NCBI RefSeq assembly: GCF_030817835.1
Contig: NZ_JAUSZR010000001.1
Coordinates: 2,852,001-2,916,000 of the forward strand
Source: Pseudarthrobacter sp. W1I19
GTDB lineage: Bacteria; Actinomycetota; Actinomycetes; Actinomycetales; Micrococcaceae
DNA: 64,000 nucleotides
Direction: 5' to 3'
Shown here: positions 18,432 through 63,182 of the stretch, one piece after another
How positions within the stretch are numbered: the first letter of the stretch is position 1
Layout: each line of letters opens with the position of its first letter
Notes under the pieces: generated by a model
The model's database searches: none
What the model saw: only the letters and a program-made list of their open reading frames with translations
Told to the model about the DNA's origin: nothing
Made by a program: the position numbers and the translations under genes

Positions 18432-18447
18432 TGTGAAGTCCACCACA
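18432..18447. promoter_or_regulatory. CRP/GlxR-type site between leucine operon and TetR
   Basis: TGTGAAGTCCACCACA matches TGTGA-N6-TCACA at 9 of 10 positions. It is centred about 96 nt before the carboxylase operon and 49 nt before tetR. Three other catabolic divergent regions in the window carry the same motif. Confidence 0.5.
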
Positions 18448-18488
18448 TAGCCGCTCTTGCTAGAATCTGCGGGATCCGAGGAGGAAAT

Positions 18489-19196
18489 GTGCGCAGTACC
18501 GACGCCACGCAGACCGGCACTGCCCGGACCGGCCCGTCAACACAGGGTTCATCAACGCAGGGTTCATCAACGCAGGGCCCGGCATCACCGGCCCCATCAA
18601 CCCAGCGCGGGCAGGCGAAGGAGAGCCGCAGGCAGGCGCTGCTGTCGGCTGCGGCGTCGCTGTTTGCGGTCAACGGGTTCAACCGTGTTTCCCTGGAGGA
18701 TCTGGGGGCGGCCGCCGGCGTCAGCGGGCCTGCCGTCTACCGGCACTTCTCCGGCAAACAGGCAGTCCTCGCAGATCTTCTGGTCACCGTCAGCCAGGAG
18801 CTGCTCGACGGCGGCCTTCAGGTCGCGGCCAGCAACTCCGACCCCGCTGCGGCCTTGAGGTGCCTGGTGGAATTCCAGGTGGATTTCGCCCTGGGCAAGC
18901 CGGACGTCATCCGTGTCCAGGACAGGGATTTCAGCAACCTTTCCGAGCAGGACCAGGCGGCAGTGCGGGCACTCCAACTGAGTTATGTCGAGGTCTGGGT
19001 GGACGTCCTCTCCAAGCTGCACCCGGACACGGATATCGCCGAGCTCCGGATGCGGGCGCATGCCACTTTCGGACTGATCAACTCCACACCGCACTCCGTG
19101 CGCAGCCACGGCCGCAAAATGGCCGCCCGTTCCGCCCGGCCCCTGCTGGAGAGTATGGCCCTGGCCGCGCTGCTGGTGGACACCCCCCAGGACTAA
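18489..19196 (+). CDS. TetR family regulator of the leucine operon
   Basis: 235 aa. An unusual 40-residue N-terminal tail with S-T-Q-G repeats (15-bp DNA units from about 18540) precedes the HTH (SRRQALLSAAASLFAVNGFN, VSLEDLGAAAGVSGPAVYRHF). The C-terminal domain follows to residue 235. GTG at 18489 has GAGGAGGAA directly upstream, and an extended -10 (TGCTAGAAT, about 18454-18462) lies at a plausible distance. Divergent placement makes it the likely repressor of isovaleryl-CoA breakdown, with an acyl-CoA as the probable inducer (inference). Confidence 0.88.
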   Translation: MRSTDATQTGTARTGPSTQGSSTQGSSTQGPASPAPSTQRGQAKESRRQALLSAAASLFAVNGFNRVSLEDLGAAAGVSGPAVYRHFSGKQAVLADLLVTVSQELLDGGLQVAASNSDPAAALRCLVEFQVDFALGKPDVIRVQDRDFSNLSEQDQAAVRALQLSYVEVWVDVLSKLHPDTDIAELRMRAHATFGLINSTPHSVRSHGRKMAARSARPLLESMALAALLVDTPQD

Positions 19197-19253
19197 GACA
19201 CCCGCGCGCGGCATTCACTCATTGGGGAATCCCATTCACCTTTACCTGGGGAC

Positions 19254-19307
19254 GGCCCTGGGCCGCATGAGCGTTGCTGGCCGGCAACGCTTATGCGGTC
19301 CAGGGCC
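19254..19307. terminator. Long hairpin between convergent tetR and E2 genes
   Basis: Arms 19254-19277 and 19284-19307 pair over 24 bp with two mismatched or wobble positions around a 6-nt loop. The hairpin lies between two convergent stops (19196 and 19329), so it can stop transcription from both sides. It has no T run on either strand, as is common in high-GC actinobacteria. Confidence 0.75.
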
Positions 19308-19328
19308 GCGGCTTCGCCAGGTAGCCAC

Positions 19329-20864
19329 CTAGACCATGGTGAGGACCATTCCCGGGTCGGCCAGGATGGCACCAACATCGGCAAGGAAGCGCGAGCCCTG
19401 CTCCCCGTCCACCAGGCGGTGGTCGAAGGACAGGCTCAGGGTGAGGACCTGGCGCAGGGCCACCTCGCCCTGGTACTCCCACGGCGTGTTCCGCACGGCG
19501 CCGAGGGCGAGGATGGCGGCTTCCCCCGGGTTGAGGATGGGTGTCCCGGCGTCAATCCCGAACACGCCGATGTTGGTGATGGAGATGGTTCCGCCGGTGA
19601 GGTCAGCCGGTGTGGTTTTGCCGGCCCGCGCAGTTTCCGTCAGTTCAGTGAGCGCGTCTGCCAGCTGAAGGAGTGACAGCGAATGCGCGTCCTTGATGTT
19701 GGGAACGGTCAGTCCCCGGGGCGTGGCGGCTGCGATGCCCAGGTTAACGTAGTTGAAGGTCACGATCTCCTGGTTCGCCTCGTCCCACCGCGCGTTGAGG
19801 GCGGGGTTCCGGCGCAGGGCAATGAGAACGGCCTTCGCTGCCAGGGTAAGCGGCGTCAGCTTGTGTCCGGTGAACTCGCGGCTTCCCTTGAGCCTGGCCA
19901 GCAGCTCCATGGCGGGAGTGACATCCACGGTGAGGAACTCCGTGACGTGCGGCGCGGTGAAGGCGCTCTGCACCATGGCGGCTGCCGTGAACTTCCGTAC
20001 CCCCTTGATGGGCGTCCGGGTTTCCCGCTCCTGGCCTGGCTGAACGCCGGCCCGGGGAACTGTTTCCCGTCCAGGCGAGCCGACGTCCGCGGACTGTCCC
20101 TCCATAAAGTGCTGGACGTCCTCGCGGGTGATCAGTCCTTGCGGTCCCGTTCCAGGGACCACTTCCAGGTTCACACCAAGGTCACGGGCCAACTTCCGCA
20201 CCGGCGGTGTGGAGCGGGGCCGGGTTTCAAGACGCCGGGTTTCGACAGGCCCGGTTTCGACAGGCTCGGTTTCGACAGGCTCAACCACCGGCGACCGGGT
20301 TTCGGCTGCGTCAACCACCGAAGGCTTGCTTTCAGCAGGCTCGGTCTCGGCAGGCTCAACCACCGAAGGCTTGCTTTCAGCAGGCTCGGTTTCGGCAGGC
20401 TCAACCCCCGGAGACTTGGTTTCTGCAGGGTCAACCACCGTGGCAAGGTTGCGTTGGCGCCGCACCGGCCGGTCGGAACTTTCGACGACGGCCCCATACC
20501 CCACCAGGTTCGGTTCCCTTTTGGCCGCTGCCGGCTCCTGCTCCGGATCCGGCTTCTGCCCCGCGGGGGACGACGTGGGGGTGACGGGCCGAGAGGAGGA
20601 GGTCCCGGCGTCGTCCGCCACTTCAAACGAGACGATGGGCTTGCCCACCTCTACGATGGTGCCGGGCTGCTCGTGCAATTCTTTGATGACGCCGGCAAAA
20701 GGGGACGGAAGCTCCACCACGGCCTTGGCGGTTTCCACCTCGGCGATCACCTGGTTCAGGCTGACGGTATCCCCCACGCCTACTTTCCAGCTGAGGATTT
20801 CCGATTCGGTAAGTCCCTCGCCCAGGTCGGGGAGCCGGAATTCCTTGATCATGGTGCCGCTCAT
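19329..20864 (-). CDS. Dihydrolipoamide acyltransferase (E2) of the branched-chain 2-oxoacid dehydrogenase
   Basis: 511 aa. The lipoyl domain is at 5-80 with K47 in VETAKAVVELP as the lipoylated lysine. A very long Pro/Glu/Thr linker (about 85-215) follows, then the peripheral subunit-binding domain (about 218-250, VRKLARDLGVNLEVVPGTG) and the acyltransferase domain (280-511) with active-site H482 and D486 in FDHRLVDG. It transfers the acyl group to CoA, giving isovaleryl-, isobutyryl- and 2-methylbutyryl-CoA. ATGA overlap with E1 beta. The linker repeats resemble a dispersed DNA repeat (separate entry). No E3 gene is present here. Confidence 0.93.
   Translation of the reverse strand: MSGTMIKEFRLPDLGEGLTESEILSWKVGVGDTVSLNQVIAEVETAKAVVELPSPFAGVIKELHEQPGTIVEVGKPIVSFEVADDAGTSSSRPVTPTSSPAGQKPDPEQEPAAAKREPNLVGYGAVVESSDRPVRRQRNLATVVDPAETKSPGVEPAETEPAESKPSVVEPAETEPAESKPSVVDAAETRSPVVEPVETEPVETGPVETRRLETRPRSTPPVRKLARDLGVNLEVVPGTGPQGLITREDVQHFMEGQSADVGSPGRETVPRAGVQPGQERETRTPIKGVRKFTAAAMVQSAFTAPHVTEFLTVDVTPAMELLARLKGSREFTGHKLTPLTLAAKAVLIALRRNPALNARWDEANQEIVTFNYVNLGIAAATPRGLTVPNIKDAHSLSLLQLADALTELTETARAGKTTPADLTGGTISITNIGVFGIDAGTPILNPGEAAILALGAVRNTPWEYQGEVALRQVLTLSLSFDHRLVDGEQGSRFLADVGAILADPGMVLTMV
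20222..20440. repeat. Array of GTTTCGACAGGCTCAACCACCG-like units inside the E2 gene
   Basis: About nine diverged units built on GTTTCGACAGGCTCAACC or its shorter form GTTTCGACAGGCTC follow one another in the linker of E2 (for instance 20237-20250, 20253-20267, 20268-20290, 20328-20344, 20358-20364, 20376-20400 and 20418-20440). Translated on the minus strand they give V-E-P-A-E-T-E-type repeats. The core resembles a repeat I remember as scattered between genes of many actinobacteria. Confidence 0.7.
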
Positions 20865-21871
20865 CCTTCCAGCCCGCTGAGTGAGTTCGGCCGGCCCAGG
20901 GCACGGTCCACGCCATCGAGGATCCGGTCCAGGCCCGGCAGGTGGTGCATCTCCAGCTTCGAATAGGGGTAGGGGATGTCGAAGCCGGTGACCCGGACCG
21001 GGGCCGCCTCAAGGTAGTAGAAGCAGCGTTCGGTGATACTGGCTGCCACCTCGGCACCCAGGCCGCCCGACTGGCCGGCTTCATGCGTCACCACCAGGCG
21101 GCCGGTCTTGCGGACGGACGCAACAACGGTGCGGTAGTCCACCGGCGACAGCGAACGCAGGTCGATGACCTCGATGGAGATCCCTTCATCGGCAGCGGCT
21201 ATAGCGGCATCCCGGGCAGTCTTGACCAACGGGCCGTAGGCCACGAGGGTGACGTGGGTGCCGTCGGTGACAACACGGGCCTGATCCATGGGAGCGGCTG
21301 TCCGCGGATCAACGGACTCGTCCACCTCACCTTTGTCGTGGTAGCGGCGCTTGGGCTCGAAGTACAGCACGGGGTCGTCGCAGGAGATGGCTTGCTGGAT
21401 GACCGTGTGGGCGTCCTGCGGGTTGGACACAGTCACCACGCGCAGGCCTGAAGTATGCGTGAAGTAGGCTTCCGGCGACTCGGAGTGGTGTTCGGGCGAG
21501 CCGATGCCGCCGCCGAACGGGATCCTGATGGTGATGGGCATCTTGACGGCGCCGCGGGTGCGGTAGTGCAGCTTGGCCACCTGGCTGACGATCTGGTCGA
21601 ATGCGGGATAGATAAAGCCGTCGAACTGGATTTCCACCACGGGGCGGTAGCCGCGGTAGGCCAGTCCCACGGCCGTCCCCACAATGGCCGATTCAGCCAG
21701 GGGCGTGTCCACAACACGGTGCTTGCCGAAATCTTTCTGCAGTCCGTCGGTCACCCTGAACACACCGCCCAGTGCCCCGATGTCCTCGCCGAGGAGGACC
21801 ACTTTGGGATCGTTTTCCAAAGACTTGCGCAGGCCGGTGTTAATGGCGCGGGCAAAGGTCATCTGGGTCAT
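20861..21871 (-). CDS. 2-oxoacid dehydrogenase E1 component, beta subunit
   Basis: 336 aa thiamine-diphosphate enzyme subunit. Signatures: NDPKVVLLGEDIGALGGVFRVT, DTPLAESAIVGTAVGLA, PVVEIQFDGFIYPAFDQIVSQ, RIPFGGGIGSPEHHSES and DLRSLSPVDYRTV. With the alpha subunit it decarboxylates 2-oxoisocaproate, 2-oxoisovalerate and 2-oxo-3-methylvalerate. Its ATG shares one base with the alpha-subunit stop (TGATG), and its stop overlaps the E2 start. The branched-chain role is inferred from the adjoining Lrp-type regulator and leucine operon. Confidence 0.94.
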   Translation of the reverse strand: MTQMTFARAINTGLRKSLENDPKVVLLGEDIGALGGVFRVTDGLQKDFGKHRVVDTPLAESAIVGTAVGLAYRGYRPVVEIQFDGFIYPAFDQIVSQVAKLHYRTRGAVKMPITIRIPFGGGIGSPEHHSESPEAYFTHTSGLRVVTVSNPQDAHTVIQQAISCDDPVLYFEPKRRYHDKGEVDESVDPRTAAPMDQARVVTDGTHVTLVAYGPLVKTARDAAIAAADEGISIEVIDLRSLSPVDYRTVVASVRKTGRLVVTHEAGQSGGLGAEVAASITERCFYYLEAAPVRVTGFDIPYPYSKLEMHHLPGLDRILDGVDRALGRPNSLSGLEG

Positions 21872-23064
21872 CAGCGTGCACCTTCTTCTGACACGGCTTC
21901 TGCGGGATCACCGAAGGAAGCCAGGTAACGGGCGTAATGGTCCTGCTGCCGGTCCAGCCAGGAATTGGGCGTGCTGTAAACGTGCTTGAAAACGTCCAGC
22001 GGCTGCGGGTCCGGCATGGTGGTGCAGCCCCTGCGCATTTCCCGGGCCACGGCGTCGGCCTTGTCCCGGACCTGCTGCTGCAGTTCTGCCGTGAGCAGGC
22101 CTTTGCGGTCCAGGAGCGCCGCAACACGGCTGACCGGATCCTTTGCCGCCCAGTCCTCGAGTTCGTTGGCATCGCGGTAGCGGGTGGGATCGTCCGCTGT
22201 GGTGTGCGGACCCATCCGGTAGCTGACTGCCTCGATGAAGGTGGGACCGCCGCCGCGCCGGGCCCGGTCCAGCGCAACCCTGGTGGCGGCCATCACGGCC
22301 AGGACGTCGTTCCCATCCACCCGGAGGCTGGGGATGCCGAACCCTGTGGCCCTGTCCGCCAGCTGGATGTGCGACTGAAGCCGGACCGGTTCGGAAATGG
22401 CCCAGTGATTGTTCGTACAGAAAAACACCACCGGCACCTGGAAGCTCGCGGCAAAAACCATGGCCTCATTGAGGTCACCTTCACTGGTGGCGCCGTCGCC
22501 GAAGTAGGTCACGGCGGCCGAATCCGCGCCATCATTTTGGATTCCCATGGCATAGCCGGTGGCGTGCAGGGTCTGGGCACCGATGATGATCTGCGGCGTG
22601 GCCATGTTGATGGAGTACGGATCCCAGCCGGAGGAGGCATTTCCGCGCCAAACCCTCACGATGTCAGTGAGGTCTACGCCCCTGCAGTAGGCGACGCCGT
22701 TTTCACGGTAGCTGGAGAACACAAAGTCGTCCTCGCGAAGGGCCCGCCCGGAACCGATCTGTGCGGCTTCCTGACCCAGCAGCGGGGGCCACAAGGCGAG
22801 CTCACCCTGCCGCTGCAGGGCTGTGGCTTCGACGTCGATGCGACGGATGACGGTCATGTCCTCGAAGAGCGAGCACAGGTGGTCGTCGGTGATGTCCTGC
22901 AACCAGGGATCGAATTCGGGGTGGCTGACGCGTTCCCCGGAAGGGGTGATCAGCTGGACAAGTCCACTTGTCCGCCCGGGGGGTTCAGCGGGACCGCCCG
23001 CGCCGGTGAAATCAGCAGCGATGGGGGCACTTGCGCTGCCTTGGCCCATTCCGTCTGTAGACAC
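21871..23064 (-). CDS. 2-oxoacid dehydrogenase E1 component, alpha subunit
   Basis: 397 aa. The ThDP-binding motif is seen as YFGDGATSEGDLNEAMVFAASFQVPVVFFC (GDG at about 210, interrupted here by family-standard spacing), followed by WAISEP and RVDGNDVLAV, and by SYRMGPHTTADDPTRYRD with the conserved regulatory-loop His. First gene of the E1 alpha-E1 beta-E2 operon. The 174-bp gap to the divergent Lrp/AsnC gene carries a perfect CRP-type palindrome and a second palindrome. Confidence 0.94.
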   Translation of the reverse strand: MSTDGMGQGSASAPIAADFTGAGGPAEPPGRTSGLVQLITPSGERVSHPEFDPWLQDITDDHLCSLFEDMTVIRRIDVEATALQRQGELALWPPLLGQEAAQIGSGRALREDDFVFSSYRENGVAYCRGVDLTDIVRVWRGNASSGWDPYSINMATPQIIIGAQTLHATGYAMGIQNDGADSAAVTYFGDGATSEGDLNEAMVFAASFQVPVVFFCTNNHWAISEPVRLQSHIQLADRATGFGIPSLRVDGNDVLAVMAATRVALDRARRGGGPTFIEAVSYRMGPHTTADDPTRYRDANELEDWAAKDPVSRVAALLDRKGLLTAELQQQVRDKADAVAREMRRGCTTMPDPQPLDVFKHVYSTPNSWLDRQQDHYARYLASFGDPAEAVSEEGAR

Positions 23065-23156
23065 GATAGCCGCAACCTCTCACGTCGTTGACCTGCGGAT
23101 TCCGGGACTTGTGGTCCCACCGCCGCCGGCCTTCCGGGCGCCGTTGCCCCGGATAC

Positions 23157-23172
23157 TGTGACCCTACTCACA
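23157..23172. promoter_or_regulatory. Perfect CRP/GlxR-type site in the bkd-type promoter region
   Basis: TGTGACCCTACTCACA matches TGTGA-N6-TCACA at all 10 positions. It is centred 100 nt before the E1 alpha start and 74 nt before the Lrp start. This is the best of four such sites in the window. Confidence 0.65.
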
Positions 23173-23182
23173 ATGCTCATTG
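23171..23182. promoter_or_regulatory. CAATG-CT-CATTG palindrome, possible Lrp-type operator
   Basis: A perfect 5-bp inverted repeat that overlaps the CRP-type site by 2 nt. A related half-site (GAATGCTC) lies at about 23212, and a looser palindrome TTGCGCATTATGCAA lies over the Lrp start itself. The arrangement fits a feed-forward Lrp/AsnC regulator acting on both divergent genes. Confidence 0.45.
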
Positions 23183-23238
23183 GGTACAACCACCGCGGCC
23201 GTCGCTGAGCAGAATGCTCTGTCTGGAGGCGTGAGACG

Positions 23239-23730: not shown

Positions 23731-23928
23731 CAGTCCCCCCGCTGTTGCCGAAGCAGGCCCCTGCCCCAGGGACGGGCGTCCGGCACGCACTCACCCCGGC
23801 TTGGGATGGGCCGCCATAAAGTACGGCGCCACGCCCGCCCGCTATAGGCTGTTGCGAGTTATCCACGGGTGCCGTTCGCTGGCCCCGCGACCAGGCGATG
23901 CATTGCAACCCGCCGGAAAGGCTCCATC

Positions 23929-24612: not shown

Positions 24613-24637
24613 CCCCAGGCAGGACCAGGAACACAAA

Positions 24638-24719: not shown

Positions 24720-26336
24720 TCAGTGGTTGACCGCTTTCTCGGCACCCACACCGGTGAGGGACCGGACCTCCATCTCGGCCTGCTTGGCGGTGTCTTCGCG
24801 CTTCTTGTCCAGGACGGTTCCGAGCCAGCCGAGCAGGAATGCCAGCGGGATGGACACAATGCCCGGGTTGCTGAGCGGGAACAGCGCGAAGTTGGCGTCC
24901 TTGATCATGGACGTCGCTCCGCCGGAAACCACCGGCGAGAAGATGATCAGCACGATCGCCGCACCCAGCCCGCCGTACATGCTCCACACCGCACCCTGCG
25001 TGGTGAACCTCCGCCAGAACAATGAGTAGATGATGGTGGGCAGGTTGGCCGAGGCGGCAACGGCGAAGGCCAGGGCCACCAGGAACGCCACGTTCTGCCC
25101 GTTGGCGAGGATGCCGCCCAGGATGGCGAGGATGCCGATGACCACCACGGTGCGCCGGGCCACCCTGACTTCAGTGTCGGCGTCGGCCTTGCCCTTGGCG
25201 ATGACGTTGGCGTAGATGTCATGTGCGAAGGACGCCGCGGCGGTGATGGTCAGGCCGGCCACAACGGCGAGGATGGTAGCGAAGGCCACCGCCGAAATGA
25301 AGCCCAGCAGCAACGGGCCGCCCAGGTGGAAGGCCAGCAGGGGTGCCGCCGCATTCACGCCGCCCGGCGCGGTCTTGATGGTGTCCGCACCCACCAGCGC
25401 GGCCGCACCGTAGCCGAGCACCAGGGTGAAGAGGTAAAAGAGCCCGATCAGCCAGATGGACCACACCACGGACTTGCGGGCTTCCTTGGCCGTGGGGACC
25501 GTGTAGAAGCGCATCAGCACATGCGGCAGGGCAGCAGTGCCCAGGACCAGTGCCAGGCCCAGGGACATAAAGTCCAGCTTGGACGTCTCGGTCTTGCCGT
25601 ACTGCAACCCGGGGTTCAGGACGGCCGGGTTGTTGGCCGTCTCCACCGCACCACCCAGCAGGGCCGAGAGGTTGAAGCCGTAAATGGCCAGGACCCAGAA
25701 GGTCATCACGGCCGCGCCCGCGATAAGCAGGATGGCTTTGATGATCTGCACCCACGTGGTGCCCTTCATGCCGCCGATGAGCACGTACATAATCATCAGG
25801 GCGCCGACGACGATGATCACCAATGCCTGTCCGCCCCAGTCGCTGATGCCCAGGAGCAGGGAGATCAAGCTTCCGGCGCCTGCCATTTGGGCCAGCAGGT
25901 AGAAGAAGCAGACGGCGAGGGTGGAGATGGCGGCGGCGATGCGGACCGGCCGCTGCTTGAGCCGGAAGGACAGGACGTCTGCCATGGTGAACTTGCCCGT
26001 GTTGCGCAGGAGTTCTGCAACCAGCAGCAGCGCCACCAGCCAGGCCACCAGGAAGCCGATGGAGTACATAAAACCGTCGTAGCCGTTGATGGCAATGGCG
26101 CCGGTGATACCCAGGAACGAGGCGGCCGAGAGGTAGTCCCCCGCGATGGCGGTTCCGTTCTGGGAGCCGGTGAAGGAGCGGCCGGCCGCGTAGTAGTCAG
26201 CTGCCGTCTTGTTGTTGCGGCTGGCGCGGAACACAATCACCATGGTCACGGCGACGAACAGGCCGAAAATGCCCATGTTCAGCAGGGTGGTGTCCTTCAG
26301 TGCGGCGACATCAACCGCTGCAAGTACGTTGATCAT
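24720..26336 (-). CDS. Sodium:solute symporter, acetate/monocarboxylate type (ActP-like)
   Basis: 538 aa, about 13-14 membrane helices, SSS family. Signatures: DYYAAGRSFTGSQNGTAIAGDYLSAASFLGITGAIA, then GGMKGTTWVQIIKAILL and LPHVLMRFYTVPTAKEARKSV, all characteristic of cation/acetate symporters. It imports acetate or related short acids with a cation. The start overlaps the stop of the DUF485 gene (ATGA), the standard YjcH-ActP pairing. The C-terminal region after 510 is charged and cytoplasmic. Confidence 0.92.
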   Translation of the reverse strand: MINVLAAVDVAALKDTTLLNMGIFGLFVAVTMVIVFRASRNNKTAADYYAAGRSFTGSQNGTAIAGDYLSAASFLGITGAIAINGYDGFMYSIGFLVAWLVALLLVAELLRNTGKFTMADVLSFRLKQRPVRIAAAISTLAVCFFYLLAQMAGAGSLISLLLGISDWGGQALVIIVVGALMIMYVLIGGMKGTTWVQIIKAILLIAGAAVMTFWVLAIYGFNLSALLGGAVETANNPAVLNPGLQYGKTETSKLDFMSLGLALVLGTAALPHVLMRFYTVPTAKEARKSVVWSIWLIGLFYLFTLVLGYGAAALVGADTIKTAPGGVNAAAPLLAFHLGGPLLLGFISAVAFATILAVVAGLTITAAASFAHDIYANVIAKGKADADTEVRVARRTVVVIGILAILGGILANGQNVAFLVALAFAVAASANLPTIIYSLFWRRFTTQGAVWSMYGGLGAAIVLIIFSPVVSGGATSMIKDANFALFPLSNPGIVSIPLAFLLGWLGTVLDKKREDTAKQAEMEVRSLTGVGAEKAVNH

Positions 26337-26713
26337 TTGTTGGCTCCTCCCACTCGCTTGCCGTGCTTATCGAATTCGTGACCCTCGATTTCGTCCCGGA
26401 TCTCCTTGGCGATGGGGTCAAGGCGTTTGTTGGAGTAGTGGACATACCAGCCGGTGATGGCAAACGTGGATACGAACTGGAGCAGGCCGAAGATCAGGCC
26501 GATGTTGATGTTGCCCCAGACCTTGGTGGACATAAAGCCCACGGCGTAGTCCGCCAGCAGGACGTAGGCGAAATACCACAGCAGGAATGCCACTGCCATG
26601 GGGAAGACAAAGCTGCGGTGACGCTTGCGCAGTTCCTGGAACTGCCCGGTCGACTGGACCTGTTCAAAGTCCACGGACGCCGCTGCGTCCGGAGTGTGGG
26701 CCTCGTTACCCAT
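26333..26713 (-). CDS. DUF485 family membrane protein (YjcH-like)
   Basis: 126 aa with two hydrophobic helices (about residues 36-58 and 72-94) between charged ends; the core ELRKRHRSFVFPMAVAFLLWY and NIGLIFGLLQFVSTFAITGWY match DUF485. It is invariably paired with ActP-type symporters, and here too its stop overlaps the symporter start. Probably an accessory subunit. First gene of the symporter operon; the CRP-like site lies about 67 nt upstream. Confidence 0.9.
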   Translation of the reverse strand: MGNEAHTPDAAASVDFEQVQSTGQFQELRKRHRSFVFPMAVAFLLWYFAYVLLADYAVGFMSTKVWGNINIGLIFGLLQFVSTFAITGWYVHYSNKRLDPIAKEIRDEIEGHEFDKHGKRVGGANK

Positions 26714-26760: not shown

Positions 26761-26797
26761 GGAAACCACAAGTGTGACTGCAATCACTTTGCTTTCC
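26761..26797. promoter_or_regulatory. CRP/GlxR-type site nested in two inverted repeats, between symporter operon and lytS
   Basis: TGTGACTGCAATCACT (26773-26788) matches TGTGA-N6-TCACA at 9 of 10. Around it AAGTG (26770-26774) pairs with CACTT (26785-26789), and GGAAA (26761-26765) pairs with TTTCC (26793-26797). It lies 67 nt before the DUF485 gene and 108 nt before the sensor kinase. Confidence 0.6.
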
Positions 26798-26888
26798 GGA
26801 ATGCACCAGACGCCATACCTGGCCCCGCCGGCGTCGCTCAACGGTCGGGATGCTGCGACAAACGGCACCCGCCGCTACGCTGGGCACC

Positions 26889-28097
26889 ATGCTGGACTCC
26901 CCCCTCCTGACCGCCGCGGCGGTGGCCGTCATCGTCATGGCTGTGGCCGTCGTCGTCGGCGTGGGGCTCAAGGTGCTCCGCTCCTTCCGGGACCTGGGCA
27001 CCGACGCGGAGCGGGCCACGTACCACACCCTGCATGCGGCCTCCCAGGCGGGGCAGCACCTGCGCCGCGGCCTGAACCCGGCCGGTGCGGCCAAAGCCAG
27101 CCGGCACCTGCGGACACTGCTGGGCTGCGAGGCCCTGGCCATCACTGACACCACCGGGGTCCTGGCATGGGATGGCGCAGCCGAGGAACTGAAGCCGCAC
27201 GTGATGCGCCTCGCGGAAGGGGTGCTGGCCGGCGGCCGGACGGTGGTGTTGCCCGCCGGGAGCCCCACGTCGGCGGACGGCGGCCCGAAGGACGCGACGG
27301 GTGGTCCGCTGGCTGCGGTGATTGCGCCGGTGCGCGCGGGAACGCGCGTGGTGGGCGCAGTGGCGGCTTTCGCGCCCTCGGCGGGTGCTGGACTGGTCCG
27401 GGCCACCAGCGAGGTGGCCGACTGGGTGGCCGTCCAGGTGGAGCTCGCCGAACTGGACGCATCCCGTACCCTGCTCATGGAAGCCGAGGTCCGGGCGTTG
27501 CGCGCCCAGATCAGTCCACACTTCATCTACAACTCGTTGAACGCCATCGCGTCGTTCATCAATACCGACCCCGCCCGCGCCCGGGAACTGGTGGTGGAGT
27601 TCGCCGACTTCACCCGCTACTCCTTCCGGCGCCACGGCGACTTCACCACCCTCGCGGAGGAACTCCGCTGCATCGACCGCTACCTGCTCCTGGAACGTGC
27701 CAGGTTCGGCGAGCGCGTGCAGGTCAGCCTGCGGGTGGCACCGGAGGTCCTGAGCACTGTCATCCCCTTCCTCAGCCTGCAGCCGCTCGTGGAGAACGCG
27801 GTGCGGCACGGGCTGGAGGCCAAGGAGGGCCCGGGACACATCAGCATCACTGCAAACGACGCCGGGGCGTTCGCCGAGGTGACGATCGAGGACGACGGCG
27901 TGGGCATGGACCCCGCGCAGCTCCAGACGATGCTGGCAGGCCATACCGACGGCGACCATGTGGGGCTGCACAACGTGGATGCCCGGCTCCGCCAGGTTTA
28001 CGGCAACGAGCACGGCCTGGTTATCGAGACCGCACCCGGGGAGGGAACGATGATCACCATGCGCGTGCCCAAGTCCCAGCCCGGCCACGACGCCTGA
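26889..28097 (+). CDS. LytS-type sensor histidine kinase
   Basis: 402 aa. One N-terminal membrane helix (5-27), a GAF-like sensor region (about 60-185, TLLGCEALAITDTTGVLAW ... PVRAGTRVVGAVAAF), then the His_kinase domain with H211 in RAQISPHFIYNSLNAIASF, the N-box LSLQPLVENAVRHGLE and the ATP lid DDGVGMD / GLHNVDARL. It phosphorylates the LytTR regulator encoded next. ATG at 26889 has no Shine-Dalgarno sequence; a TACGCT -10-like box 6-11 nt before it suggests a leaderless mRNA. GTG/TTG starts upstream would add non-conserved residues. Confidence 0.92.
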   Translation: MLDSPLLTAAAVAVIVMAVAVVVGVGLKVLRSFRDLGTDAERATYHTLHAASQAGQHLRRGLNPAGAAKASRHLRTLLGCEALAITDTTGVLAWDGAAEELKPHVMRLAEGVLAGGRTVVLPAGSPTSADGGPKDATGGPLAAVIAPVRAGTRVVGAVAAFAPSAGAGLVRATSEVADWVAVQVELAELDASRTLLMEAEVRALRAQISPHFIYNSLNAIASFINTDPARARELVVEFADFTRYSFRRHGDFTTLAEELRCIDRYLLLERARFGERVQVSLRVAPEVLSTVIPFLSLQPLVENAVRHGLEAKEGPGHISITANDAGAFAEVTIEDDGVGMDPAQLQTMLAGHTDGDHVGLHNVDARLRQVYGNEHGLVIETAPGEGTMITMRVPKSQPGHDA

Positions 28098-28133
28098 ATC
28101 AACCGGTGGAGCCGCGGGAGCTAACCTAGGAAG

Positions 28134-28850
28134 ATGATTAACGTCCTCGTCGTCGATGATGAGCTTCCCGCCGTCGAGGAACTGGCGTTCCTGCTGGGCC
28201 GGGACGACCGTATTGGCACCGTCCAGCGGGCCACCTCCGGCAGCGAGGCCCTCCGGGCGCTGGCCACGGGCCAGATTGACGCTGTTTTCCTGGACATCCA
28301 TATGCCGGCAGTGTCCGGCCTGGATATTGCCCGCGCCATCAGCGGCAGCAGGAATCCCCCGGCGGTGGTGTTTGTCACCGCGGACGAGGACCATGCGCTG
28401 AAGGCCTTCGAACTCGCCGCCGTGGACTACCTGCTCAAGCCGGTCCGTGCCGAACGGCTGGCACGGTCAGTGGGGCGGATCAGTGAACTGCGCGACGGCG
28501 GAACGGCGCCGGAGATGATCACGGTGGACCAGGGCGGGACCACCAGGATGATCCGCCGCGATGATGTCACGTACGTCCAGGCGCAGGGTGACTACGCGCG
28601 GCTTCACACGGCTGATGCAAGCTACCTGATCAGGGTTCCGCTGGCCGATCTTGAGCAGCAGTGGGCCGATGCAGGGTTTATCCGGACCCACCGCTCCTAC
28701 CTCGTCGCCCTGAAGCATGTGACCTCCATGAAGCTGGCAGCAGACGGGCCCAGGGTTACCGTGGCGGGGGCCGGACTGCCCATTAGCCGCCGCCACCTGC
28801 CAACGGTCCGGGAGAAGCTGGGTGCCACTCGGATCAGGCCGCACGCATGA
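28134..28850 (+). CDS. LytTR family response regulator
   Basis: 238 aa. Receiver domain 1-118 with acidic pocket VVDDE and phosphoacceptor D54 in FLDIHMP; T/S and K positions are VTADED and LLKPV. LytTR DNA-binding domain about 132-232 (MIRRDDVTYVQAQGDYARLHT ... WADAGFIRTHRSYLVAL, ISRRHLPTVREKL). It pairs with the sensor upstream and probably controls the flanking symporters, as for BtsSR/YpdAB-like systems that govern carboxylate uptake. Its stop overlaps the start of the small membrane protein (ATGA). Confidence 0.94.
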   Translation: MINVLVVDDELPAVEELAFLLGRDDRIGTVQRATSGSEALRALATGQIDAVFLDIHMPAVSGLDIARAISGSRNPPAVVFVTADEDHALKAFELAAVDYLLKPVRAERLARSVGRISELRDGGTAPEMITVDQGGTTRMIRRDDVTYVQAQGDYARLHTADASYLIRVPLADLEQQWADAGFIRTHRSYLVALKHVTSMKLAADGPRVTVAGAGLPISRRHLPTVREKLGATRIRPHA

Positions 28851-37528: not shown

Positions 37529-38716
37529 TCAGACGATGGCGGAAATTCCCGTGATCGCCCGGCCTGTCACCAGCGTGTTGATCTCGTGGGTTCCCTCGTA
37601 GGAGTAGATGGCTTCGGCGTCGGCGAAGATCTTTGCCATCTCAAAGTCAGTCACGATGCCGTTGCCACCCAGGATGTTCCGGCCGATGGCCACGCTTTCA
37701 CGCATCCTGGCCGTGGTGAAGGCCTTCGCCAAGGCCGACTGCTCGTCCTTCGCCTCGCCCGCATCCTCAAGCTGGGAGAGCCGGACCATCATGCCCATGG
37801 AGCTGACGGCATTGCCCAGGATCTGTACAAGCTGGCTCTGGACCAGCTGGAAGGAGGCAAGGGGCCTGCCGAACTGGTGGCGCTCCACCGCGTACCGGCG
37901 CGCCACGTCGAAGGCTGCCAGCTGCTGGCCCACGGCCTGCCAGGCGACACCGAGGCGGGTGACTTTGAGGACTTTGTTGACGTCGCGGAAGCTGTTGGCG
38001 TGCGCCAGCTTGTAGAAGTCCGGTACCACCACGTTATCCAGGGTGATGTCGGCGTTCTGGACCGTCCGGAGGGCGATCTTGTTCTCGATCTTCGCCGCGC
38101 TGAAGCCCTCCAGCGAGGCGTCCACTAGGAAGCCTTTGACCCGGTTGTCTTCAACATCGCGGGCGTAGATCACCACCCAGTCGGAGAAGGTGGCGTTTCC
38201 AATCCAGCGCTTGGCGCCGTTGAGGATCCAGGAGTCCCCCTCGCGCTTGGCAGTGGTGCGCGTCCCGCCGGCCACGTCCGATCCGCCGAGCGGTTCGGTC
38301 AGACCGAAAGCCCCGATTTTCCGAAGCGAATATATGTCGGGAAGCCACGCGTCCTTTTGCTCCTGGGAGGCCAGGGCTTCGATGGAACCGGTAAAGAGTC
38401 CGTCGTGCACACCCATAAAGGTGGCGATGGAAGCGTCGGCCCGGGTCACCTCGGCGTGCATCAGGCCGGCGAAGAGGTTGGAGTGGCCTTGCCGTCGGAC
38501 CGGGCTGACCAGGTCGATGTCGGCGAGCTTCGGAATCAGCTCCATGGGGAATTCGCCGCGGTTCCAGCAGTCCACGGCGATGGGCTTGACCTCGCGGGCC
38601 AGGAAGTCCCGGACCTCTGCCAGCCGGTCCTGCTCTTTTGCACTGAGCATCTGTTCGAAGGCATAGAAGTCGCCGTCGGCGTAGGGCAGGCCGAGGTTGG
38701 AATCGGACGTGGACAT
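37529..38716 (-). CDS. Acyl-CoA dehydrogenase (glutaryl-CoA dehydrogenase-like)
   Basis: 395 aa. FAD/substrate segment IGAFGLTEPLGGSDVAGGT; C-terminal IYSYEGTHEINTLVTGRAITG carries the catalytic Glu in YEGT. ILGGNGIVTDFEMAKIFADAEA is typical of glutaryl-CoA-type and related enzymes. It stands alone, with no regulator beside it, but a 26-bp perfect palindrome lies 50 nt upstream. ATG at 38716 has GCGAGG upstream and begins the family core. Confidence 0.9.
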   Translation of the reverse strand: MSTSDSNLGLPYADGDFYAFEQMLSAKEQDRLAEVRDFLAREVKPIAVDCWNRGEFPMELIPKLADIDLVSPVRRQGHSNLFAGLMHAEVTRADASIATFMGVHDGLFTGSIEALASQEQKDAWLPDIYSLRKIGAFGLTEPLGGSDVAGGTRTTAKREGDSWILNGAKRWIGNATFSDWVVIYARDVEDNRVKGFLVDASLEGFSAAKIENKIALRTVQNADITLDNVVVPDFYKLAHANSFRDVNKVLKVTRLGVAWQAVGQQLAAFDVARRYAVERHQFGRPLASFQLVQSQLVQILGNAVSSMGMMVRLSQLEDAGEAKDEQSALAKAFTTARMRESVAIGRNILGGNGIVTDFEMAKIFADAEAIYSYEGTHEINTLVTGRAITGISAIV

Positions 38717-38765: not shown

Positions 38766-38791
38766 GGTATGTTACTGGTCAGTAACATACC
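38766..38791. promoter_or_regulatory. 26-bp perfect palindrome, operator of the acyl-CoA dehydrogenase
   Basis: GGTATGTTACTG and its exact complement CAGTAACATACC flank GT. The core TTACTGGTCAGTAA is of the kind bound by TetR-family regulators of acyl-CoA metabolism in actinobacteria. It lies 50-75 nt before the start codon, over the likely promoter. The cognate repressor is not in this window. Confidence 0.75.
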
Positions 38792-39169: not shown

Positions 39170-39243
39170 GTAGGGCTACTCGGACTTGAACCGAGGACCT
39201 TAGGATTATGAGTCCCGCGCTCTAACCAGCTGAGCTATAGCCC
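39170..39243 (-). tRNA. tRNA-Met (anticodon CAT)
   Basis: 74-nt cloverleaf on the minus strand. The acceptor stem GGGGCTA pairs with TAGCCCT (G-U at the end); TAGCTCAGCTGGTTAGAGC forms the D arm, and the anticodon loop CTCATAA lies in a CGGGA/TCCTA stem with a C-A at its base. The T arm is TCGG-TTCAAGT-CCGA. CCA is not encoded. CAT could also be elongator Met or lysidine-modified Ile; elongator Met is favoured. Confidence 0.9.
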
Positions 39244-39317
39244 CTTGCTGCCCCGAACCTCCCACAAACAGTGCGCGGCAGCAGGGCAAAAACACTCTAG
39301 CAAACCCCGGAAGGCGT

Positions 39318-45286: not shown

Positions 45287-45359
45287 CTCCTCCTGCTGGA
45301 CTTGAACCAGCAACCCTTCGATTAACAGTCGAATGCTCTGCCAATTGAGCTAAGGAGGA
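45287..45359 (-). tRNA. tRNA-Asn (GTT), copy 1
   Basis: 73-nt cloverleaf on the minus strand: acceptor TCCTCCT/AGGAGGA with discriminator G, D arm TTAGCTCAATTGGCAGAGC, anticodon loop CTGTTAA, T arm GCTGG-TTCAAGT-CCAGC. CCA is not encoded. Identical to copy 2 downstream on the plus-strand coordinate scale. Confidence 0.95.
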
Positions 45360-45484: not shown

Positions 45485-45557
45485 CTCCTCCTGCTGGACT
45501 TGAACCAGCAACCCTTCGATTAACAGTCGAATGCTCTGCCAATTGAGCTAAGGAGGA
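45485..45557 (-). tRNA. tRNA-Asn (GTT), copy 2
   Basis: Same 73-nt sequence as copy 1, 125 nt away, in the same orientation, with its own terminator. The sequence just upstream of each copy (ATGAAGC-GGTAT on plus) is also similar, so the duplicated unit includes the promoter. Confidence 0.95.
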
Positions 45558-56934: not shown

Positions 56935-56966
56935 TGAATCCACATTACGTCAGGCATTATTGCTTC

Positions 56967-57194: not shown

Positions 57195-57254
57195 CGCACC
57201 GACTCGGCACCCGGCGGGCCTGGCCGCCTGAGCCGCCGCCCCGCCGTCGTATGC

Positions 57255-57914: not shown

Positions 57915-57921
57915 TCTTACA

Positions 57922-57937
57922 GTTACCCAAAGGTAAC
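57922..57937. promoter_or_regulatory. GTTACC-CAAA-GGTAAC inverted repeat between divergent hydrolases
   Basis: A perfect 6-bp inverted repeat in the 68-bp gap between the esterase and the SGNH hydrolase starts. It could be an operator serving either gene. Confidence 0.45.
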
Positions 57938-57982
57938 AACCTACGTTCGCGCAGCCCGCGCAACGGAAGGCAGGATAGGACC

Positions 57983-58852: not shown

Positions 58853-58905
58853 CGGAGTGATTGTGGCCGGCGGCCCGGTGCGGGCAGTTGAATAGCGGGG
58901 CTGAC

Positions 58906-60069: not shown

Positions 60070-60101
60070 GCTGGAAGGACACCAATGAGAGGCACGGCAC
60101 C

Positions 60102-60641: not shown

Positions 60642-60665
60642 GCCCTGCCGTTGCTGCTTGGCCCC

Positions 60666-60729
60666 GGCCTTAATCCACCTGGGCCTTAATCCACCTGCGT
60701 CTTAATCCACCTGGGCCTTAATCCACTTG
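60666..60729. repeat. Four 16-bp tandem repeats spanning the mmsA stop
   Basis: Units GGCCTTAATCCACCTG at 60666, 60682, 60698 (one change cluster) and 60714. The last unit holds the mmsA stop codon and final codons, so the others are copies of the gene's own 3' end placed downstream of it. Since 16 is not a multiple of three, they do not extend the protein. Confidence 0.85.
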
Positions 60730-62202
60730 GGGGAAGCCCAGGTCGATGACGGACGTTGCCGGATCAGGCCACCGCGTGGTGACCACTTTGCCGCGGGTAT
60801 AAAACCGGATACTGTCCGGCCCGTACATGTGGGTGTCGCCGAACAGCGAGTTCTTCCAGCCGCCGAACGAGAAGGTTCCCACGGGAACGGGAATGGGCAC
60901 GTTGACGCCGACCATGCCTGCTTCTACGTCGAACTCGAACTGCCGTGCGGCACCGCCGTCGCGGGTGAAGATGGCAACGCCATTGCCGAACTCGTTGTCG
61001 TTGACCAGGCTGACGGCGTCACTGTAGGTATCCACCCGCACCACGGACAGGACCGGGCCGAAGATTTCGTCGTCGTACACCTTCATGCCCGGCTTCACGT
61101 GGTCCACCAGGCTGACTCCGATGAAGAACCCGTTTGAATCGAACTGCTGTTCGCGGCCGTCCACCACCACGGTGGCGCCTTCATTCTCTGCGCCCGCCAC
61201 GTAAGAGGCCACCTTGTCACGGTGTTCGGCGGTGATCAAAGGGCCCATCTGCGACGTCGGGTCGGTGCCCGGGCCGATCGTGAGGGTGGCCATCCGGCTC
61301 TTGATGGCGGCGACGAGGTCGTCGGCGATGCTCCCGACGGCGACGAGCACGCTGACCGCCATGCAGCGCTCACCCGCCGAGCCGTAGGCGGCCGAGATTG
61401 CGGCGTCCGCGGCCATGTCCAGGTCCGCGTCTGGCAGGACCACCATGTGGTTCTTGGCCCCGCCCAGGGCCTGGACCCTTTTGCCGTGGTCCGCGGCGCG
61501 CTTGTAGATCGACTGCGCAATGGGCGTCGATCCCACGAAGCTGACGGCTTTGACGTCGCGGTGTTCGAGCAGGACGTCCACCGCCTCCTTGTCGCCCTGG
61601 ACCACGTTCAGCACGCCGGCGGGCAGGCCTGCCTCCGCGAAGACCTCCGCGATGAACACCGCGGAGGACGGATCCTTTTCGCTGGGCTTCAGCAGCACGG
61701 TATTGCCGCAGGCCAAGGCGCTGCCGATCATCCAGAGCGGCACCATGGCCGGAAAGTTGAACGGGGTGATGCAGGCGACGACGCCCACCGGCTGCCGGAC
61801 GGAATGGACGTCCACGCCGCTGGAGACCTGTTCGGACCGTTCGCCCTTGAGCATGTGGGACAGTCCGGTGGCGAACTCGATATTCTCGAGGCCGCGGGAG
61901 ATCTCGCCTTCGGCGTCGGAAAGTACCTTGCCGTGTTCGCTGGTGAGGATGGCGGCCAGTTCGGCCTTGCGCTGGGTCAGGATTTCCCTGACCCGGAAAA
62001 AGATATTGGTCCGCTTGGCCAGGCTCGTTGCCCGCCAGGCCGGCAGCGCTGCCTTGGCCGCGGCAATGGCTTCCTCCACCCGCGCCGCGGAAGCCAGCGC
62101 CACCTGCTTCTCCTGCTCCCCGGTGGCGGGGTTGAAGACGGGGCCGAAGCGCGCGGCATCGGCAACGCGGCTGCCGTTGATGTAATGCGGAATGGTTTGC
62201 AC
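60718..62202 (-). CDS. mmsA: Methylmalonate-semialdehyde dehydrogenase (CoA-acylating)
   Basis: 494 aa aldehyde dehydrogenase. NAD site VACITPFNFPAMVPLWMIG, KPSEKDPSS and FVGSTPIAQSIY; catalytic Cys in SAGERCMAVSVLVAVG; C-terminal FGGWKNSLFGDTHMYGPDSIRFYTRGKVVTTRW is the MMSDH signature. It converts methylmalonate semialdehyde and CoA to propionyl-CoA in valine breakdown. GTG 62202 with AGAGAT upstream; 13 nt after the mmsB stop. Confidence 0.95.
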   Translation of the reverse strand: MQTIPHYINGSRVADAARFGPVFNPATGEQEKQVALASAARVEEAIAAAKAALPAWRATSLAKRTNIFFRVREILTQRKAELAAILTSEHGKVLSDAEGEISRGLENIEFATGLSHMLKGERSEQVSSGVDVHSVRQPVGVVACITPFNFPAMVPLWMIGSALACGNTVLLKPSEKDPSSAVFIAEVFAEAGLPAGVLNVVQGDKEAVDVLLEHRDVKAVSFVGSTPIAQSIYKRAADHGKRVQALGGAKNHMVVLPDADLDMAADAAISAAYGSAGERCMAVSVLVAVGSIADDLVAAIKSRMATLTIGPGTDPTSQMGPLITAEHRDKVASYVAGAENEGATVVVDGREQQFDSNGFFIGVSLVDHVKPGMKVYDDEIFGPVLSVVRVDTYSDAVSLVNDNEFGNGVAIFTRDGGAARQFEFDVEAGMVGVNVPIPVPVGTFSFGGWKNSLFGDTHMYGPDSIRFYTRGKVVTTRWPDPATSVIDLGFPQVD

Positions 62203-62215
62203 GGCTATCTCTTTT

Positions 62216-63118
62216 CTATTTGGCTGATTGGAGCGAACCATCGGCAAGTTTGATGATCATGGAGCAGTCCTTGCCGGATTCGCCCGCGTCAATAAGGCGT
62301 TGGTACAGCTGCTGAACGTGCCTGCCGATTTCGAGTGGCGTGCCGGTGTCCTCCGCAGCGCTGATGGCCAGGCCGATGTCCTTGTTCGCCAGCTCGGCAG
62401 TAAACGTGGGTGCGAAATCGTTGTTGGATGCGGCGGTGGGGACTACGCCGGGAACGGGGTACCAGGTGCGCAGGGCCCAGCTGTCCCCGGACGACACGGA
62501 GGCGATGTCCCAGAACACCTTCTTATCCAGGCCCAGTCGGTCCGCCAGCACTGCACCCTCGGCCGTGGAGGCCAGGTTGATCAGGAGCATCAGGTTGTTG
62601 CAGATCTTCGCCGCCTGGCCCGTGGTGGCTCCGCCGGTAGGAATGATGTTGGCGGCCATCGGCCCGATGTAGGTGGTGGCCTCGGCCACGGCGTCCGGTT
62701 CACCGCCCACCATGAACGTCAGTGTCCCTGCCTTGGCGCCGCTCATCCCGCCTGAGACAGGGGCATCCACGAAGCGGAAGCCGGCGGCAGCGGCGGCGTC
62801 GTGCAGTTCCTTTGCTGCGGCAATGTCAATGGTGGAGGAATCCACCAGGAGTGTGCGCGCATCGGCATGCGCCAGCACGCCATCCGCTCCCAGATAGACG
62901 GCCTTTGCATGCTCGCCTTTCGGAAGCATGGTGAAGACGGCGTCCGCGCCGGTGACTGCCTCCGCGATGCTCCCGGCCGGCTTTACCCCTTCAGCCTCCG
63001 CAGCGGCGAGGGCGGCCGGGTTGAGGTCGAATCCGCGGACGTCGTGCCCCGCTTTTGCAAGGTTCGCCGACATGGATCCGCCCATGTTCCCCAAACCGAT
63101 CCAACCGATTACTGCCAT
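62216..63118 (-). CDS. mmsB: 3-hydroxyisobutyrate dehydrogenase
   Basis: 300 aa beta-hydroxyacid dehydrogenase. Rossmann start WIGLGNMGGSMSANLAKAGH, substrate site DAPVSGGMSGAKAGTLTFMVGG, catalytic Lys in GGATTGQAAKICNNLML. It oxidises 3-hydroxyisobutyrate to methylmalonate semialdehyde for MmsA. ATG 63118 has AAGGAGC upstream. First gene of the mmsBA operon, with a CRP-like site 56 nt before it and a divergent LysR gene. Confidence 0.94.
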   Translation of the reverse strand: MAVIGWIGLGNMGGSMSANLAKAGHDVRGFDLNPAALAAAEAEGVKPAGSIAEAVTGADAVFTMLPKGEHAKAVYLGADGVLAHADARTLLVDSSTIDIAAAKELHDAAAAAGFRFVDAPVSGGMSGAKAGTLTFMVGGEPDAVAEATTYIGPMAANIIPTGGATTGQAAKICNNLMLLINLASTAEGAVLADRLGLDKKVFWDIASVSSGDSWALRTWYPVPGVVPTAASNNDFAPTFTAELANKDIGLAISAAEDTGTPLEIGRHVQQLYQRLIDAGESGKDCSMIIKLADGSLQSAK

Positions 63119-63166
63119 CGCCCAAGCTCCTTTGCTGTGCCTCCGGCCGGGAGCAGCCGGAAGGTC

Positions 63167-63182
63167 TGTGTCCACCATCACA
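63167..63182. promoter_or_regulatory. CRP/GlxR-type site between mmsB and LysR gene
   Basis: TGTGTCCACCATCACA matches TGTGA-N6-TCACA at 9 of 10 positions, centred 56 nt before the mmsB start and 82 nt before the LysR start. Confidence 0.5.

What the first reader, a model, noticed from the sequence alone, without database searches (positions are those of the whole stretch)
18432..63182. Four CRP/GlxR-type palindromes, one at each divergent catabolic promoter
TGTGA-N6-TCACA occurs with 10/10 matches at 23157-23172 (bkd-type operon/lrp) and 9/10 at 18432-18447 (leucine operon/tetR), 26773-26788 (acetate symporter/lytS) and 63167-63182 (mmsB/lysR). Each site lies in a short gap between divergent starts, at 49-108 nt from a start codon. 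I compared these gaps by eye with several other intergenic regions in the window and saw no further match. A 9/10 match in a given 150-bp gap is expected well under once in a hundred, so all four together point to a common cAMP-type regulator of branched-chain amino acid and acetate use.
Basis: partly seen in the sequence, partly recalled or inferred. Interest (0 to 1): 0.75.

Follow-up and report, generated by a model that had tools for sequence, protein, structure and literature searches.

The report
cAMP-regulator binding sites before catabolic genes
Two of the four look-alike DNA switches in this soil-bacterium stretch are very probably landing sites for its one cAMP-sensing master regulator, a third may be, and the fourth is better explained by a neighbouring repressor's own sites, so this is a mostly ordinary extension of a known bacterial control network.

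Summary
The only TGTGA-N6-TCACA matches of 9/10 or better in the window are the four named, each in a divergent gap; the other six divergent gaps score 7 or less. Shuffling gives 0.2-0.5% per gap. The motif is real genome-wide: 20 non-genic against 8 genic matches in a contiguous 1.21-Mb block (13% non-genic), and 81 against 15 reversed-control perfect matches in 26 genus genomes. One Crp/GlxR-type protein was found.

"One regulator at all four" holds only in part. The bkd site (10/10 in 81/81 gaps and 8/8 family genomes) and the acetate-transporter site (9/10 in 71/74) are strongly supported; both are missing in a family where no GlxR was found, although the divergent Lrp or LytS-type gene is mostly kept. 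The mmsB site is seen only in the genus and overlies a LysR-type promoter. The leucine-operon site is lopsided, is missing in three family genomes of two other genera that have GlxR, and abuts TetR-type dyads conserved more widely.

The regulator is global (also citrate synthase, GAPDH, PTS, acetyl-CoA synthetase), not specific to branched-chain amino acids. At bkd the dyad encloses a conserved TANNNT box, suggesting repression. No binding was measured.

The parts
23157..23172 (.). TGTGACCCTACTCACA, 10/10 dyad between the bkd operon (-) and lrp (+); predicted GlxR operator
   Evidence: 10/10 in 81 of 81 gaps, window included, and in 8 of 8 same-family genomes; the 22 loci from other families score <=8
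23161..23166 (-). predicted -10 box TAGGGT of bkd, inside the dyad
   Evidence: in 81 gaps TAGGGT 64, TATGGT 11, TATCGT 6; TATTTT in G165 of another genus. Read by eye; the strict sigma-70 scan found none
23184..23189 (-). predicted -35 box TTGTAC of bkd, 17-nt spacer
   Evidence: TTGTAC in 79 of 81, TTGTGC in 2 of 81; TTGTGC or TTGCGC in the four family genomes outside the genus; by eye
21871..23064 (-). E1 alpha of a 2-oxoacid dehydrogenase, taken as bkd-type; E1 beta 20861-21871 and E2 19329-20864 follow
   Evidence: NCBIfam model TIGR03181, above its cut-off, names it pyruvate dehydrogenase E1 alpha; the bkd assignment is inferred from the leucine-catabolic neighbours and the M. luteus BCKD cluster (PMC5857589)
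23239..23730 (+). Lrp/AsnC-family regulator, divergent from bkd
26773..26788 (.). TGTGACTGCAATCACT, 9/10 dyad between the DUF485/monocarboxylate-transporter operon (-) and a LytS-type kinase (+); predicted GlxR operator
   Evidence: 9/10 in 71 of 74, 8/10 in 3; half-sites 99.5% conserved against 63-67% in the flanks; 9/10 in three family genomes of two other genera and in one genome of another family
24720..26713 (-). DUF485 protein (26333-26713) and MctC/ActP-type monocarboxylate/acetate symporter (24720-26336)
   Evidence: MctC equivalog 902.8 bits, cut-off 670; DUF485
26850..28850 (+). LytS-type histidine kinase and LytTR response regulator
63167..63182 (.). TGTGTCCACCATCACA, 9/10 dyad between mmsB (-) and lysR (+); possible GlxR operator, seen in the genus only
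   Evidence: 9/10 in 10 of 16, 8/10 in 6 of 16 genus loci, the window's own included; not found in the lysR-linked loci of G123, G137, G149
63224..63239 (.). TGTGCACTGATGCACA, likely LysR-type regulator site
   Evidence: TGTGCA-N4-TGCACA in 16 of 16 genus loci; TGTGC-N6-GCACA in G123 and G149, one mismatch in G137
62216..63118 (-). 3-hydroxyisobutyrate dehydrogenase-type mmsB; aldehyde dehydrogenase 60718-62247 follows
63257..64000 (+). LysR-family regulator, runs past the window end
   Evidence: LysR_substrate, HTH_1; read from L097
18432..18447 (.). TGTGAAGTCCACCACA, 9/10 dyad between the leucine operon (-) and tetR (+); GlxR assignment not supported
   Evidence: 9/10 in 50, 8/10 in 23, 7/10 in 2 of 75 gaps; best 6/10 in G065, G123, G137, which have GlxR
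18389..18405 (.). GGTTAGT-N6-TAAC, TetR-type dyad 1
   Evidence: two GTTA-N8-TAAC copies in 73 of 75 gaps; at least one in 7 of 8 more distant loci
18415..18431 (.). GGTTAGT-N6-TAAC, TetR-type dyad 2, 26 bp from the first and directly abutting the 18432 dyad
14499..18385 (-). biotin carboxylase (14499-16739, with a methylcrotonyl-CoA carboxylase alpha BT domain) and carboxyltransferase (16736-18385) of the leucine operon
18489..19196 (+). TetR-family regulator (SACE_7040 family), likely repressor of the leucine operon
   Evidence: 269.4 bits, cut-off 250; a TetR gene near the M. luteus leucine cluster represses it (PMC5857589, passages); orthology of the two not tested

Best explanation
The bkd and acetate-transporter dyads are operators of the single Crp/GlxR protein of this Arthrobacter-like actinobacterium, part of a global cAMP-dependent regulon. 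At bkd the operator lies over the -10 box, so bound GlxR would block RNA polymerase and repress branched-chain 2-oxoacid oxidation; at the transporter it lies about 60 nt upstream of both start codons and could act on either gene. The mmsB dyad may be a genus-level GlxR site laid over a LysR-type promoter. The leucine-operon dyad is most likely not a GlxR site but a composite of a TetR dyad's edge and core-promoter bases. Shown: positions, enrichment, conservation, presence/absence in relatives, the protein. Inferred: binding, cAMP dependence, direction of control.
For: Motif enriched outside genes (20 non-genic/8 genic; control 2/7) and across the genus (81 against 15 in 26 genomes). One Crp protein with cNMP and Crp-type HTH domains, whose recognition helix ASRETVNKALA is identical in the alignment to the best solved-structure match 3i54; one class-III cyclase domain. 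bkd 10/10 in 81/81 gaps and 8/8 family genomes of four genera. act: clean isolated footprint, 9/10 in 71/74, also in G065, G123, G137 and G028. In f19, where the GlxR search found nothing in 4 of 4 genomes tried, bkd scores 6-7 in 8 of 8 although Lrp is divergent in 7 of 8, and act scores 5-7 in 3 of 3 although the LytS-type gene matched in 2 of these. Spacer variants keep TANNNT exactly where a -10 should lie.
Against: No binding or expression data. The 6 f8 loci score only 6-8 at bkd though GlxR was found in the 3 f8 genomes tried, and G084 (f8) has a Crp-like cNMP hit but no act site: the sites are not obligatory companions of GlxR. f19 is one clade, so its lack counts as one event. The strict promoter scan found no promoter in any of the four gaps; the -10/-35 readings are by eye. 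In G165 the best act match is 8/10 and lies far from the start. NCBIfam names the E1 alpha a pyruvate dehydrogenase, so the bkd role itself is inferred.
Confidence: 0.72

Rival explanations
1. The bkd dyad is the operator of the divergent Lrp/AsnC protein, which represses bkd, not of GlxR.
For: Lrp is divergent in every bkd gap of the window's family examined; another dyad with the same left half, TGTGACCC, lies between an aminotransferase gene and an Lrp/AsnC gene (genome position 3365045).
Against: Seven of 8 f19 loci and 5 of 6 f8 loci keep the divergent Lrp gene without a >=9/10 dyad (best 6-8); the dyad is a 10/10 match to a motif enriched genome-wide, mostly at genes without an Lrp neighbour.
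Confidence: 0.17
2. All four sites, including the leucine-operon and mmsB sites, are GlxR operators.
For: All four are the top-scoring places in the window with a matrix built from 50 other sites. Imperfect GlxR sites can work: C. glutamicum ldhA has TGTGATTTTTTCAACA (PMC7999487, passages). TGTG...CAC is kept in most mcc gaps.
Against: mcc: the T of TCACA is replaced in 68 of 75 gaps, and no dyad remains in G065, G123, G137, which have GlxR. mms: no dyad besides the LysR-type one in G123 and G137, which have GlxR.
Confidence: 0.2
3. The leucine-operon dyad is the edge of a TetR operator array plus promoter bases.
For: Two GTTA-N8-TAAC dyads 26 bp apart, the second ending at the base before the site, in 73 of 75 gaps; such dyads are kept in 7 of 8 more distant loci, including 3 f19 genomes where no GlxR was found; a TetR gene near the M. 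luteus leucine cluster represses it (PMC5857589, passages).
Against: The bases right of TAAC (TGTGA-GTCCA-CAC) are also nearly invariant in the 75 gaps, which the TetR dyad alone does not explain; the -35 assignment (TTGGAC on the minus strand) is by eye.
Confidence: 0.65
4. Chance matches.
For: The genome has a background of genic matches (16 of 73 classified sites).
Against: 0.2-0.5% per gap and near-perfect conservation of bkd and act.
Confidence: 0.04

Closest known systems
GlxR of Corynebacterium glutamicum and its regulon
   Same: cAMP-binding Crp family member; consensus TGTGANNTANNTCACA (PMC4254451, passage); global, activating or repressing more than 100 genes (PMC7026483, passage); chains 3r6s, 4byy, 4cyd are among the best solved matches (that these are C. 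glutamicum GlxR is recalled)
   Different: Here the conserved targets are a bkd-type operon and an MctC-type transporter; the listings showed no paper on a GlxR regulon of Arthrobacter relatives; no central TA preference in the local motif
Crp of Mycobacterium tuberculosis
   Same: Best solved-structure matches (3i54, 3d0s) with identical recognition helix in the alignment of 3i54 (species recalled)
   Different: Target genes not compared here
BCKD and leucine clusters of Micrococcus luteus (Mlut_06800-06890)
   Same: BCKD genes near a TetR gene that represses the leucine cluster (PMC5857589, passages)
   Different: Lrp, cAMP and catabolite do not occur as words in that paper's main text; its DNA was not compared here

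Membership tests
Crp/GlxR operator (bkd, act) | 16-bp dyad TGTGA-N6-TCACA in a regulatory gap | tested here: met
Crp/GlxR operator (bkd, act) | cognate Crp protein with matching recognition helix in the genome | tested here: met
Crp/GlxR operator (bkd, act) | half-sites under selection in orthologous gaps | tested here: met
Crp/GlxR operator (bkd, act) | site absent where the regulator is absent | tested here: met
   f19: GlxR found in 0 of 4 tried; bkd site in 0 of 8, act site in 0 of 3; one clade only, and f8 lacks the bkd site although GlxR was found in 3 of 3 tried
Crp/GlxR operator (all) | cAMP-dependent binding of the protein | not testable with these tools
   needs EMSA or footprint
Crp/GlxR operator (mms) | half-sites under selection and kept with GlxR | tested here: inconclusive
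   16 of 16 genus loci >=8/10; missing in G123, G137 with GlxR
Crp/GlxR operator (mcc) | both half-sites under selection and kept with GlxR | tested here: not met
TetR operator (mcc) | dyads beside a divergent tetR, kept with the gene pair | tested here: met
   73 of 75 gaps with two copies; 7 of 8 more distant loci with at least one
LysR-type promoter (mms) | dyad about 65 bp upstream of the predicted start, beside a divergent lysR | tested here: inconclusive
   dyad and lysR met; start site predicted by eye only

The most novel reading that the evidence does not exclude
Across the window's family, cAMP-GlxR is a direct roadblock repressor of the branched-chain 2-oxoacid dehydrogenase operon, with the operator and the -10 box fused into one 16-bp element, so that cAMP level sets branched-chain amino acid oxidation and the supply of branched acyl primers for membrane lipids.
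Probability: 0.45. Interest if true: 0.5.

Novelty: new member of a known kind. Interest (0 to 1): 0.35.

Why it matters
It extends the GlxR/Crp network, best known (recalled) from corynebacteria and mycobacteria, to soil Arthrobacter relatives, gives two well-supported targets for a bench test, and shows that look-alike dyads in one window can be sorted by conservation and by relatives in which the regulator was not found. The bkd element links a second messenger to branched-chain amino acid use and possibly to branched fatty acid supply.

Tried and rejected
The idea that all four sites share one regulator was tested and dropped for the leucine operon. A structured RNA leader for bkd (72 nt just downstream of the dyad; 55 of 76 distinct locus sequences plus the window, 56 rows) was tried: the sequence is conserved, but RNAalifold gives only 8 pairs with a covariation term of -0.63, and Rfam shows only three tRNAs in the window at its cut-offs and one sub-threshold match in the gap; left as a note. 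The strict sigma-70 scan found no promoter in the four gaps. Weak 8/10 matches in the window show no excess. Enrichment of the window over the block rate is not significant (P = 0.06). Dropped before counts: of 80 fetched loci (best 80 of 162 found), 74 gave a usable mcc gap, 80 a bkd gap and 73 an act gap; the window was added to each. mms: close mmsB relatives (87-100%) were found in 16 of 25 genus genomes, the own one included; the other 9 had only distant paralogues and were not used. G165 gave no tetR hit at the cut-off, so its mcc gap was not seen. Of 75 genome sites 73 were classified; 3526052 and 3527973 were not fetched. Of 68 neighbouring genes 60 were scanned; 6 of these had no Pfam family at 1e-12.
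Full report
WHAT WAS CHECKED. The four dyads are present as described and are the only matches to TGTGA-N6-TCACA with at most one mismatch in the window; at two mismatches the window has 9 matches against a shuffle mean of 17, so there is no excess of weak matches. With a simple gene caller trained on long open frames, ten gaps in the window are divergent; four carry the dyads and the other six score at most 7. Genes beside those six include dxr-, rpsB- and holin-type genes, a lipase maturation factor, a transporter of the MFS type and esterase-like genes, mostly not obvious catabolic operons. Shuffling the four gaps gives a 9/10 match in 0.22-0.50% of cases.

IS THE MOTIF REAL IN THE GENOME? 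The window lies at 2,852,001-2,916,000 of a 4.81-Mb genome. The genome has 75 sites at >=9/10 against 36 for the reversed pattern. Across 26 genus genomes perfect sites sum to 81 against 15 for the reversed pattern (my sum of the rows); bkd-type sequences are among the listed matches of most genomes, so these counts are not independent of the bkd site. In a contiguous 1,212,144-base block I counted 28 sites, 20 non-genic and 8 genic, where non-genic DNA is 154 kb (binomial P about 1e-12); the reversed pattern gives 2 and 7, and TGTGA ranks first among 30 permuted half-sites. Of the 73 sites classified out of 75, 54 lie upstream of a gene, 3 between convergent genes and 16 inside genes. A matrix built from 50 non-window sites shows no clear preference in the spacer or flanks and ranks the four window sites first to fourth in the window.

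WHAT THE OTHER SITES PRECEDE. Among 60 of 68 neighbouring genes scanned are citrate synthase, two GAPDH genes, a PTS enzyme I-type protein, an acetyl-CoA synthetase-type enzyme, a pyruvate-carboxylase-type enzyme, glycine cleavage P-protein, serine hydroxymethyltransferase, several solute-binding proteins, a citrate-type transporter with a sensor kinase, a ring-hydroxylating dioxygenase and regulators of the LacI, DeoR, IclR, LysR, TetR, PucR and Lrp types. Others are not obviously catabolic (a Na+/H+ antiporter, a glutamate-cysteine ligase-type enzyme, an AI-2E family transporter), and 6 of 60 had no family at the cut-off. This is the picture of a global carbon regulator. gapA activation and aceA repression by GlxR are reported for C. 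glutamicum (PMC7999487, passages).

THE REGULATOR. One protein has a cNMP-binding domain and a Crp-type helix-turn-helix; no second cNMP domain was found in the genome. Its best solved-structure matches are Crp/Fnr-family regulators, and the recognition helix ASRETVNKALA is identical in the one alignment shown. One class-III cyclase domain was found.

CONSERVATION, bkd. In 81 of 81 gaps (80 loci plus the window) the dyad is 10/10. The spacer is nearly as conserved, and its variants suggest why: on the bkd strand it reads TAGGGT 64, TATGGT 11, TATCGT 6, always TANNNT, with TTGTAC (79) or TTGTGC (2) 17 nt upstream. The 8 same-family genomes (four genera) among the 30 loci all have the 10/10 dyad; one has TATTTT in that place, and the four outside the genus have TTGTGC or TTGCGC. 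So the dyad encloses a predicted -10 box; the CACA on its downstream side is not part of a -10 box and still never varies. This promoter is read by eye; the strict scan reports none. A regulator bound there should repress bkd. Intracellular cAMP of C. glutamicum is lower on acetate than on glucose (PMC7999487, passage), so in that organism's logic GlxR repression would be strongest on sugar; whether that holds here is unknown. NCBIfam names the E1 alpha a pyruvate dehydrogenase subunit; the branched-chain role is inferred from the neighbours.

CONSERVATION, act. In 74 gaps the dyad is 9/10 in 71 and 8/10 in 3. Half-sites are 99.5% conserved, the spacer 87% and the flanks 63-67%: an isolated, symmetric footprint. 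It recurs at 9/10 in three family genomes of two other genera (G065, G137, G123) and in G028 of another family. G165 of a fourth genus has only 8/10 at a distant place, and G084 (f8) scores 6.

CONSERVATION, mms. In 16 genus loci, the window's own included, the dyad is 9/10 in 10 and 8/10 in 6; the left half reads TGTGT, CGTGT or TATGT. In G123, G137 and one G149 locus, which keep lysR, the best matches (7-8/10) are the LysR-type dyad itself, and the other dyad is gone, while a TTGA-type box and the LysR-type dyad (one mismatch in G137) remain; three further mmsB loci without lysR score 6-7. By eye the -10 would again fall in the dyad and the LysR-type dyad about 65 bp upstream of the start.

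CONSERVATION, mcc. Of 75 gaps 50 score 9, 23 score 8 and 2 score 7. In 68 of 75 the T of the right half-site is A or C; the other seven have TGTGT on the left. Directly to the left lie two GTTA-N8-TAAC dyads 26 bp apart, in 73 of 75 gaps. In G065, G123 and G137, where GlxR is present, the TGTGA dyad scores 6, while TetR-type dyads remain; they also remain in 3 of 3 f19 loci and in one of two f8 loci. In M. luteus a TetR gene near the leucine cluster represses it (PMC5857589, passages). The genes are a biotin carboxylase with a methylcrotonyl-CoA carboxylase domain and a carboxyltransferase.

THE NATURAL EXPERIMENT. In family f19 the GlxR search found nothing in 4 of 4 genomes tried at E <= 1e-40. 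Of 8 f19 genomes, 3 have no cNMP domain and 5 have weaker ones, those above the cut-off in open frames of 480-981 aa. All 8 lack the bkd dyad (best 6-7), though 7 keep the divergent Lrp gene; 3 of 3 lack the act dyad, though 2 of these gave a LytS match. This speaks for GlxR and against Lrp or the LytS pair as the binder. Limits: one clade, and f8 lacks the bkd dyad in 6 of 6 loci (best 6-8) although GlxR was found in 3 of 3 f8 genomes tried, so presence of GlxR does not force the site.

NAMES.

LITERATURE. Searches for GlxR with Arthrobacter, Arthrobacter with cAMP receptor protein and regulon, and Arthrobacter with catabolite repression, cAMP and Crp listed no paper whose title or abstract start describes such a regulon; only open-licence PubMed Central papers are searched. 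Listings only were seen, except for passages of PMC7026483, PMC5857589, PMC4254451, PMC7999487 and PMC8467076.

VERDICT. Observation confirmed; interpretation partly supported. Two sites are well-supported members of a known kind, one is undecided, one is better explained otherwise.

Noticed in passing
window 23085-23156, minus strand: The predicted 5' leader of bkd is strongly conserved (CCGGGGCAACGGCGCCCGG and GGGACCACAAGTCCC hairpin-like stretches) in the related loci; RNA structure support is weak and Rfam gives nothing above cut-off there.
   Followed up: partly
window 38766-38791: 26-bp palindrome GGTATGTTACTGGTCAGTAACATACC with 12-bp arms, upstream of the minus-strand gene 37529-38716; looks like an operator of an unknown regulator.
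   Followed up: no
window 57922-57937: Palindrome GTTACCCAAAGGTAAC in the divergent gap 57914/57983.
   Followed up: no
L227 3046-3061 (genome 3365045-3365060): TGTGACCCGGCGCACA between an aminotransferase gene and another Lrp/AsnC gene shares its left half with the bkd dyad; conservation not tested.
   Followed up: no
L246, L247, L248, L249, L250, L252: Upstream of bkd-type genes in other families lie related but different dyads such as CGTTACCTTCGCCACA and CGTGACGCGCGCCACA; their regulator is unknown.
   Followed up: no
window 45287-45359, 45485-45557, 39171-39244, minus strand: Three tRNA genes; the first two have the same score and length and may be duplicates.
   Followed up: no
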